Shown here in pieces: positions 6,926 through 8,644 of a stretch of 34,034 nt of DNA (position 1 is its first letter; the number at the start of each line of letters is the position of its first letter). The translations under genes and the position numbers were made by a program. Source of the DNA: Ectothiorhodospiraceae bacterium (GTDB taxonomy: Bacteria > Pseudomonadota > Gammaproteobacteria > Nitrococcales > Aquisalimonadaceae); the NCBI GenBank assembly GCA_007117515.1, contig SKGQ01000069.1, positions 1 to 34,034 on the forward strand, given 5' to 3'. The notes beneath the pieces were generated by a model. That model was given only the letters and a program-made list of their open reading frames with translations, was not told the origin of the DNA and searched no databases.

Positions 6926-6980
6926 GTCGTGCCCTCGGTCGGAATACGGCATATCCGGTAACGCCGCGATGCGCCCCGGC

Positions 6981-7051
6981 CGGATCACACCGCGCGGATC
7001 CGCTGCGCTTGATCCGCCCTACGGTCGCCGACCGTTGCCGTTCGGGCGTAG
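6981..7051. repeat. Left part of interrupted intergenic repeat (copy A)
   Basis: These 71 bp match 8425-8495 almost perfectly, with only a few substitutions. At 7051 the match stops abruptly where the IS110 element begins, and the rest of the repeat resumes at 8246. Copies A and B therefore document an insertion site and its empty counterpart. The DNA is GC-rich and contains several short inverted repeats. Confidence 0.85.
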
Positions 7052-7073
7052 ATACCGTCTTGATCCATCCGGT

Positions 7074-8057
7074 TCAAGCGCTCTGGTGCAGTGGCTGATA
7101 GGGCGTCTGCGACTTGAGTACACCAAAGGCGATATGCAGGAGCTTTCGCATGGCCGCGCCGATGGCGGCCATCTTGGCCTTGCCGCGATTGAGCAGACGC
7201 TGGTACTGATGGCGGACGTCCGGATTGCGCCGGGTGGCCACTACGGCGGCCATGTAGAGCGTTTGACGGAAGCGTGCCGAGCCGGCCTTGGACAGCCGGG
7301 GTTGTGCGTGGACCGAGCTGCCGGACTCCCGGTGCACCGGCACCAGGCCATGGAACGCGGCCGCTTGCCGTGCAGTGCGGAAGGCACGGCTGCGCAGGGT
7401 GGCAGTCATCGACGCCGATAAGACGCGACCAACGCCCGGGATACTCTCGAGCAGCGCCCGGTCCTGCTTCAGGTGTGCGTTCGCGTCGAAGTGATCGTCG
7501 ATCTGGCGCTGCAGCCGGCGATGTTCCTCGTGCAGCGCACCGAGCACATTGCTGATCGACTCCTGGGCCAGGGCATCACCATTGAACTGCGCCTTCTCCC
7601 GCCGGTTCTCCTCGCGCCGGATGTCCCGCTCCAGGGCTTCGAGCCGGTTGAGCCGGCGCTTGAGCTCGCGCACCTCCGGCGGCTCGGGCTGCCAGGGCGC
7701 TGGCGCGCGCTCGATGCCATAACGGGCCAGCATCATGCTGTCCTTGCGATCGGTCTTGTTGCGCACGCCCATGCCCTGAGCGTGATAGCGCACCTGGGCC
7801 GGGTTCAGTACATAGACCTGCACGCCGTGCTCATGCAGCCAGTACGCCAGCGGTTCGTGGTAAATGCCGGTCGCCTCCAGATACACATGCAGCGCGTCAG
7901 CCGGCTCACCGGTGTTGCGCTCCAGCCAATGCAGCAGGTCCGGATAGCGCGCTGGATCGTTGGTGAAGACCTTGGGCTTGACCTTGGCCGTTTCCAGATC
8001 GCGGACCCACATGCAGTCGAGTTTTCGCTTGCTGACATCAATCCCGATATGTGCCAT
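7074..8057 (-). CDS. IS110-family transposase (DEDD/Tnp_20 recombinase)
   Basis: A 327-residue RNA-guided recombinase. The N-terminal RuvC-like DEDD domain shows IGIDVSKRKLD (Asp7), YLEATGIY (Glu61) and NKTDRKDSMMLARY (Asp103, Asp106). A coiled-coil-like, Arg/Glu-rich stretch follows at about 125-190. The C-terminal Tnp_20 domain has LLESIPGVGRVLSA, FHGLVP, HRESGSSV with the catalytic serine candidates at 245-248, and RLSKAGSARFRQTLYMAA. The start is ATG at 8057, downstream of GAGG. An in-frame extension to 8153 would run through the predicted bridge RNA and is rejected. No frameshift or internal stop is present, so it is likely active or recently active. Confidence 0.95.
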   Translation of the reverse strand: MAHIGIDVSKRKLDCMWVRDLETAKVKPKVFTNDPARYPDLLHWLERNTGEPADALHVYLEATGIYHEPLAYWLHEHGVQVYVLNPAQVRYHAQGMGVRNKTDRKDSMMLARYGIERAPAPWQPEPPEVRELKRRLNRLEALERDIRREENRREKAQFNGDALAQESISNVLGALHEEHRRLQRQIDDHFDANAHLKQDRALLESIPGVGRVLSASMTATLRSRAFRTARQAAAFHGLVPVHRESGSSVHAQPRLSKAGSARFRQTLYMAAVVATRRNPDVRHQYQRLLNRGKAKMAAIGAAMRKLLHIAFGVLKSQTPYQPLHQSA

Positions 8058-8059
8058 CT

Positions 8060-8240
8060 CGTCCTCTCGCCTTGTCCGTACAGCCTCACCCGCCCACGGC
8101 AGGGGGCTTGGATACCGTTCAAACTTCGAGATGAGACGGCCCCGGGGACCCATCTACGCGACAGGCTCATGGCCTCAGGGTGCATTCGGGTTGCCCCGGA
8201 ACCGATGCGACTCATGGTAGCTAGTCATCAGCCGCAAGAC
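8060..8240 (-). ncRNA. Predicted bridge RNA of the IS110 element
   Basis: Read on the minus strand, two stem-bounded loops fit the IS621 bridge-RNA plan. Target loop: the stem GGTTCCGGGG (8203-8194) pairs with CCCCGGGGCC (8147-8138), with two G-U pairs. Inside it, AATGCACCCT (8186-8177) is identical to the target left half plus CT core (8253-8244). GCGTAG (8159-8154) is complementary to CTACGC, the core plus right target. Donor loop: it is bounded by 8138-8127 pairing with 8069-8060. ACGGTATC (8118-8111) repeats the element's right end plus the first core base. ACAAG (8075-8071) is complementary to core plus left end, CTTGT. The order (left target, right target, left donor, right donor guide) matches the known system. 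Exact RNA ends are inferred, and 8138 is claimed by both stems, so the junction is approximate. Confidence 0.85.
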
Positions 8241-8245
8241 ACAAG

Positions 8246-8287
8246 GGTGCATTAAGCGCAGCGAATGCACGGGGTGTCAGGCATTGG
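8246..8287. repeat. Right part of interrupted repeat (copy A), with target hairpin
   Basis: This segment continues the repeat interrupted at 7051 and matches 8496-8537 apart from a few substitutions. GTGCATT (8247-8253) and AATGCAC (8264-8270) form a 7-bp stem with a 10-base loop. The IS110 insertion point is immediately outside the stem, a site type known for IS110-family elements that target REP-like hairpins. Confidence 0.85.
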
Positions 8288-8424
8288 AACCACCGCACCG
8301 GCGCTGATCGCCTGACCGGGGCCGACCTGGGGCATGTCGGCAGGTTCGGTAGCCTCGGTTTTCCGCCAGGCGGCGTTATATCTGGAAGCCGAACCACTCC
8401 GCCAACGCCGGGGCGCTCCCGATA

Positions 8425-8537
8425 CGGATCACACCGCGAGGATCCGCTGTGCTTGATCCGCCCTACGGTCGCCGACCGTTGCCGTTCGGGCGTAGGGTGC
8501 ATTAAGCGAAGCGAATGCACGCGGTGTCAGGCGTTGG
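8425..8537. repeat. Intact intergenic repeat (copy B), unoccupied IS110 target
   Basis: A full-length copy of the repeat whose other copy is split by the IS. It retains the same 7-bp hairpin arms (8497-8503 and 8514-8520) and the same core AG at 8494-8495, flanked by the 10-base and 6-base guide matches. It is therefore a perfect but unused target. The 137 bp between the copies (8288-8424) hold no gene that I can see. Confidence 0.85.
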
Positions 8538-8644
8538 GTTGAGGCAACGCACCATTTCGCTTGTCCCGTATGCCCTCGCCCCGGTACCATATAAGGCTGT
8601 TTTCCGGCGTATTTGCCCTCAGTGAACCCACAGGTTTCCCAGCA

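What the first reader, a model, noticed from the sequence alone, without database searches (positions are those of the whole stretch)
7052..8243. IS110 element whose bridge RNA can be decoded: target and donor guides both match
In transposase orientation the 186-bp 5' region contains, in order, AATGCACCCT (identical to left target plus CT core, 10/10), GCGTAG (complementary to core plus right target, 6/6), ACGGTATC (identical to the element's right end plus first core base, 8/8) and ACAAG (complementary to core plus left end, 5/5). The first pair is enclosed by a 10-bp stem (8194-8203 with 8138-8147) and the second by a shorter stem. Order and strand logic equal those described for the IS621 bridge RNA. 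All four matches plus CT cores on both sides make chance unlikely. It appears to be an intact, programmable recombinase with a readable specificity, from a different host group than E. coli IS621.
Basis: partly seen in the sequence, partly recalled or inferred. Interest (0 to 1): 0.85.

Follow-up and report, generated by a model that had tools for sequence, protein, structure and literature searches.

The report
REP-targeting IS621-type bridge-RNA element
This is a complete-looking jumping gene of a recently described kind that carries its own RNA address label, and here the label reads exactly onto a short repeated hairpin of the host genome; the mechanism is already known, but the case is unusually clean and its relatives show the label changing together with the destination.

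Summary
Window 7052-8243 (minus strand) is a structurally intact IS110-family element of the IS621 subgroup. It has a 327-aa DEDD/Ser recombinase and a 186-nt 5' region that a covariance model built only from relatives finds at E ~4e-40. All four guide matches exist at the stated places; none of 20,000 shuffles reproduces all four. I add the 9:7 bulged right-donor pairing, handshake bases, a sigma-70-like promoter formed only in the circular form, and a near-empty site next door.

Relatives in Thioalkalivibrio, Halomonas, Alcanivorax and others carry different target guides, each matching its own insertion site (18 guides, permutation p about 2e-6). One Thioalkalivibrio genome holds nine copies of three guide lineages, each at its own sites.

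The core is the AG of the conserved GTAG next to the hairpin, the register deduced for IS621 in E. coli REPs. The host has 16 exact free sites.

So it is a new member of a known kind. Not shown: transcription, activity, the circle. The modest novelty is a natural series in which the guide's variable part follows the REP stem while GTAG stays fixed.

The parts
7052..8243 (-). IS110-family (IS621-type) element, 1192 bp without cores
   Evidence: ends defined by the uninterrupted neighbour copy
8244..8245 (-). core dinucleotide, left side (CT in transposase orientation)
7050..7051 (-). core dinucleotide, right side (CT in transposase orientation)
7074..8057 (-). recombinase gene, 327 aa; D7, E61, D103, D106, S245 align with IS621 D11, E60, D102, D105, S241
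   Evidence: NF033542 206 bits; phmmer to IS621 2.8e-56 and ISCro4; residue mapping
8058..8243 (-). region of the predicted bridge RNA
   Evidence: covariance model from relatives only: 162.5 bits, E 4e-40; covariation
8206..8236 (-). 5' stem-loop of the predicted bridge RNA
   Evidence: fold
8194..8204 (-). 5' arm of the target-loop stem, pairs with 8137-8147
   Evidence: compensatory changes in relatives
8137..8147 (-). 3' arm of the target-loop stem
8177..8186 (-). left target guide AATGCACC-CT
   Evidence: 10/10 to the left flank plus core
8154..8159 (-). right target guide GCGTAG
   Evidence: 6/6 complementary to core plus right flank
8152..8153 (-). handshake bases AT, complementary to the last two element bases AT before the right core
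   Evidence: sequence with the rule in PMC11208158
8111..8118 (-). left donor guide ACGGTATC
   Evidence: 8/8 to right element end plus first core base
8071..8079 (-). right donor guide ACGGACAAG, pairs with CTTGTGT around a GG bulge
   Evidence: same 9:7 discontiguous pairing as IS621
8070..8070 (-). handshake base G, complementary to target base C left of the core
   Evidence: sequence; compensatory C with target G in L053
7072..7077 (-). -35-like TTGAAC; 17 bases from -10-like TATCTT formed over the core only when the two element ends are joined
8246..8270 (-). left flank: REP-type hairpin GTGCATTCGCTGCGCTTAATGCAC plus C, ending at the core
7046..7049 (-). right flank ACGC; with the core it gives CTAC, the complement of the REP GTAG
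8398..8553 (.). uninterrupted copy of the same repeat unit (near-empty site)
   Evidence: 134/152 identical to the joined flanks, no gap at the junction

Best explanation
A mobile element of the IS110 family, IS621 subgroup. Excised as a circle, its joined ends form a promoter that transcribes a ~180-nt bridge RNA from the left end (inferred). The recombinase binds that RNA. [quoted passage not shown] the other pairs with the element's own joined ends. Ser/DEDD strand exchange at the CT core inserts the circle between the hairpin and its GTAG motif. Shown here by sequence: element ends, guides, RNA fold, catalytic residues, near-empty site, guide-target covariation in relatives. Inferred from IS621: transcription, circle, strand exchange.
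For: Full-length homology to IS621 and ISCro4 with all five catalytic residues. Four guides in IS621 order. RNA model from relatives hits 8058-8243 end to end; 29 of 41 pairs have two-sided changes, covariation score 0.357 against 0.156 shuffled and 0.05-0.19 slid. Joined flanks match an uninterrupted neighbour copy without a gap at the junction. 18 distinct guides match their own sites at 6.8 of 9 bases against 3.5 permuted, p about 2e-6. Nine copies with three guide lineages in one Thioalkalivibrio genome each sit at the site their guide names. Circle-junction promoter TTGAAC-N17-TATCTT. The handshake rule holds, including a compensated swap in L053.
Against: Only one copy in this genome, so no internal replicate. 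No transcript, circle or insertion data. No Rfam match (I did not check whether Rfam holds a bridge-RNA family). Right target guides of relatives often match only CTAC, so the 6/6 match here may exceed what is needed.
Confidence: 0.95

Rival explanations
1. The recombinase recognises the REP hairpin by shape or protein contacts, and the guide matches are a by-product of shared repeat sequence.
For: 20 of 24 insertion sites have a stem of 5 bp or more abutting the core against 20% of control CTAC sites.
Against: The identical H. beimenensis element also sits in what reads as coding sequence with no hairpin (stem 3) but a 7/9 guide match. In one genome different guides go to different REP stems. 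L056, whose flank shows no obvious hairpin by eye, has TTGCCACCT in both guide and flank.
Confidence: 0.04
2. A dead, decayed copy whose guides are only a fossil of the original insertion.
For: Single copy in the genome despite 16 exact free target sites.
Against: Open 327-aa frame, all catalytic residues, intact guides, stems and ends. The relative L047 shows what decay looks like: interrupted gene, broken stem, 4/9 guide match.
Confidence: 0.2
3. The matches are chance similarities.
For: The 5- and 6-base matches occur in 8% and 5% of shuffles.
Against: Joint product 1.7e-9, and independent replication with 17 other guide variants in relatives.
Confidence: 0.005

Closest known systems
IS621 (E. 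coli), bridge RNA-guided IS110 element (PMC11208160, PMC11208158)
   Same: Recombinase homology and catalytic residues, bridge RNA in the left end, order and strand of the four guides, CT core, bulged 9:7 right donor pairing, handshake bases, circle-junction promoter, REP target with the core next to the hairpin
   Different: Different host; target guide reads AATGCACC instead of the published IS621 target ATCAGGC; right target guide matches 6 bases against 4 in IS621; REP stem differs
ISCro4 (PDB 9t56)
   Same: Homologous recombinase, E 4.8e-55
   Different: Guides and targets not compared here
IS1111-group elements with seekRNA, such as ISPa11 in P. aeruginosa REPs (PMC11187229, PMC1525189)
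   Same: DEDD transposase, RNA-guided choice of a REP site
   Different: IS1111 has subterminal inverted repeats and the RNA usually downstream of the gene; here it is upstream
ISPpu9/ISPpu10 and other REP-inserting IS elements (PMC1525189)
   Same: Insertion into interspersed REP sequences
   Different: Other REP families; guide decoding was not part of that study

Membership tests
IS110 family, IS621 subgroup | DEDD RuvC domain plus Tnp domain with catalytic serine | tested here: met
   NF033542, phmmer to 8wt6, residues D7 E61 D103 D106 S245
IS110 family, IS621 subgroup | Long left non-coding end upstream of the gene holding the RNA | tested here: met
   186 nt upstream, about 22 nt downstream of the stop codon; covariance hit
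IS110 family, IS621 subgroup | 5' stem-loop, then two stem-loops with internal loops, conserved by covariation | tested here: met
   donor-loop outer helix less certain
IS110 family, IS621 subgroup | Left/right target and donor guides in order, on the described strands, including the core | tested here: met
   9:7 bulged right donor pairing
IS110 family, IS621 subgroup | Scarless insertion at a core dinucleotide | tested here: met
   near-empty site comparison
IS110 family, IS621 subgroup | Promoter rebuilt at the circular junction | tested here: met
   TTGAAC-N17-TATCTT, by consensus only (8 of 12 bases)
IS110 family, IS621 subgroup | Bridge RNA is transcribed and bound by the recombinase | not testable with these tools
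   needs small-RNA sequencing and a binding assay
IS110 family, IS621 subgroup | RNA-guided recombination activity | not testable with these tools
   needs a two-plasmid assay
IS1111 group | RNA in the downstream end, long subterminal inverted repeats | tested here: not met
   RNA region is upstream; downstream end is about 22 nt. Subterminal repeats were not scanned for
REP element (target) | Interspersed hairpin preceded by GTAG | tested here: met
   GTAG-GGTGCATT...AATGCAC; 16 exact guide-matching sites in the genome, 0 reversed controls; GTAG heads most REPs listed in PMC2817692
REP element (target) | RAYT (Y1 transposase) in the same genome | tested here: not met
   no PF01797 match in the host genome, nine in a Thioalkalivibrio with related elements; so 'REP-type' is used for layout, not for RAYT dependence

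The most novel reading that the evidence does not exclude
This clade of IS110 elements specialises in REP hairpins: the right target guide and core stay fixed on the GTAG motif, while the left guide is free to drift and follows whichever REP stem is abundant in the host, so that lineages with different guides coexist in one genome. That would be natural reprogramming of a bridge RNA caught in progress, with the element living on the substrate of another mobile family.
Probability: 0.5. Interest if true: 0.55.

Novelty: new member of a known kind. Interest (0 to 1): 0.38.

Why it matters
It gives a decodable bridge RNA with a new predicted target (AATGCACC-CT-ACGC) and a set of natural relatives whose guides and targets changed together over short distances, including within single genomes. 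That is useful for guide design rules and for asking how such elements change target in nature. The principle itself was published in 2024.

Tried and rejected
Rfam gave no match even at E up to 1. No close relatives in viral contigs or plasmids at the limits used. RNAalifold on the full 19-row alignment gave a weak consensus because the loop regions differ in length; counting pairs of the window's own structure was informative. The upstream-extended 359-aa frame from 8153 was rejected as the real gene start: it would run through the RNA, and relatives align from the ATG at 8057. First slices for L053 and L055 were corrected before the final statistic. Structure prediction was not run, since sequence homology to solved IS621 covers the whole protein.

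Full report
The sequence was checked first. In transposase orientation the left flank ends TTAATGCACC-CT and the element starts TGTGTCTTG; the element ends GACGGTAT-CT and the right flank continues ACGCCCG. Dinucleotide shuffles of the same 186 bases contain them at rates of 0.0002, 0.045, 0.0024 and 0.079, never all four in 20,000 shuffles.

The recombinase is a full-length relative of IS621 and ISCro4 and passes the NCBIfam cut-off for IS110 RNA-guided transposases. Its D7, E61, D103, D106 and S245 align with IS621 D11, E60, D102, D105 and S241, the residues whose mutation abolished recombination (PMC11208158).

The insertion is real and scarless. Joining the two flanks gives a sequence that aligns over 152 columns (134 identical, no gap at the junction) with an uninterrupted copy of the same repeat unit about 150 bp away, at 8398-8553. 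The disrupted sequence is a hairpin, GTGCATTCGCTGCGCTTAATGCAC, followed by CCTACG. Read on the other strand it is GTAG-G followed by the hairpin, the layout of REP sequences (PMC2817692) and of the E. coli REPs used as queries in PMC11208160. The core is the AG of GTAG. From the published IS621 target ATCAGGCCTAC and the listed E. coli REP GCCTGATGCGCTACGCTTATCAGGCCTACG, I deduce the same register for IS621. The host genome holds 16 exact unoccupied TAATGCACCCTACR sites and none of the reversed control, one copy of the element and no Y1/RAYT gene.

The RNA was tested without using the window. A covariance model built from eight relatives finds window 8058-8243 end to end with 162.5 bits and also finds distant relatives. 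On 19 sequences the window's structure keeps 76% of pairs against 64% shuffled, with 29 of 41 pairs changed on both sides; sliding the partner by 1-3 columns drops the score from 0.357 to 0.05-0.19. The target-loop stem is CGGTTCCGGGG/CCCCGGGGCCG here, GGCCAGAAGGG/CCCTTCTGGTT in Halomonas and TGCTGGCGGG/CCCGCCAGCA in Alcanivorax. The alignment of distant rows in the 5' stem-loop is imperfect, which lowers that helix to 57%.

Further details match IS621. The right donor guide is best read as ACGGACAAG, pairing with seven element bases around two extra bases, as described. The left donor guide is eight bases and pairs with only the first core base, as for IS621 A123-C130. The base after the right target guide (A) is complementary to the last element base (T), and the base after the right donor guide (G) to the last target base before the core (C): the handshake rule of PMC11208158. 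In L053 the target base is G and the RNA base is C, a compensated swap. The joined ends form TTGAAC-N17-TATCTT; the -10 half crosses the core and is lost on insertion. This is inference by consensus.

Relatives give the strongest evidence. Elements in Thioalkalivibrio, Halomonas/Vreelandella, Alcanivorax and unnamed Gammaproteobacteria carry different left target guides. Eighteen distinct guides match their own insertion sites at 6.8 of 9 bases on average, against 3.5 when guides are permuted (maximum 5.6 in 500,000 permutations). Related guides share ancestry, so the permutation p is an indication, not an exact probability. One Thioalkalivibrio genome holds nine copies of three guide lineages, whose recombinases are 85-92% identical between lineages: six with TCAGGCTC at GCAGGCTC (one at GCAGACTC), two with ATCGCATC at ACGCATC or CCGCATC, one with TTGGCCTC at CTGGCCTC; only one of 252 ways of assigning these guides to these sites is fully concordant. 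In Alcanivorax DG881 two copies whose RNA regions differ at four positions (98% identical) have two of those differences inside the guide, and both match their own flanks.

Most sites are hairpins (20 of 24 with a stem of at least 5 bp abutting the core, against 20% of control CTAC sites), but an identical Halomonas beimenensis element also sits in an open reading frame with no hairpin and a 7/9 guide match. That favours guide reading over hairpin recognition. Right target guides beyond CTAC match their sites poorly in most relatives, so the fixed anchor is CTAC and the variable part is the left guide.

The element is a new member of the published bridge-RNA family. What stays open is activity, and whether the clade really tracks REP families over evolution.

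Noticed in passing
window 6953-7049 and 8399-8495: The REP-type repeat unit flanking the element is duplicated (88% identical), in a cluster of at least two hairpin types (GGATC stem and GTGCATT stem) that share a similar loop (CGCTGCGCTT) and the tail CCTACG.
   Followed up: partly
window 8050-8070: The ribosome-binding-like GAGAGG and the ATG of the recombinase lie at the 3' edge of the predicted RNA; in several relatives CATCTCG and CGAGATG could pair in the donor-loop outer helix, so folding of the RNA might hide the start codon.
   Followed up: no
host genome: No Y1/RAYT transposase found although GTAG-headed hairpin repeats are common; Thioalkalivibrio G386 has nine matches.
   Followed up: partly
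L047: Decayed relative in T. versutus: interrupted recombinase frame, broken target-loop stem, right guide GCAG instead of GTAG, 4/9 match to its flank.
   Followed up: partly
L040 and L044: Truncated head-to-tail partial copies in Halomonas, with a second left end about 230-250 bp downstream of the first.
   Followed up: no
L087:94-290: Bridge-RNA-like hit (E 5e-5) over 1 kb upstream of a distant IS110 gene, with an unrelated stretch between them.
   Followed up: no
host genome against its family: None of 13 other genomes of the family has this element at E 1e-60, while copies about 80% identical in DNA occur in Thioalkalivibrio of the same class; horizontal transfer is likely but was not tested.
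   Followed up: partly
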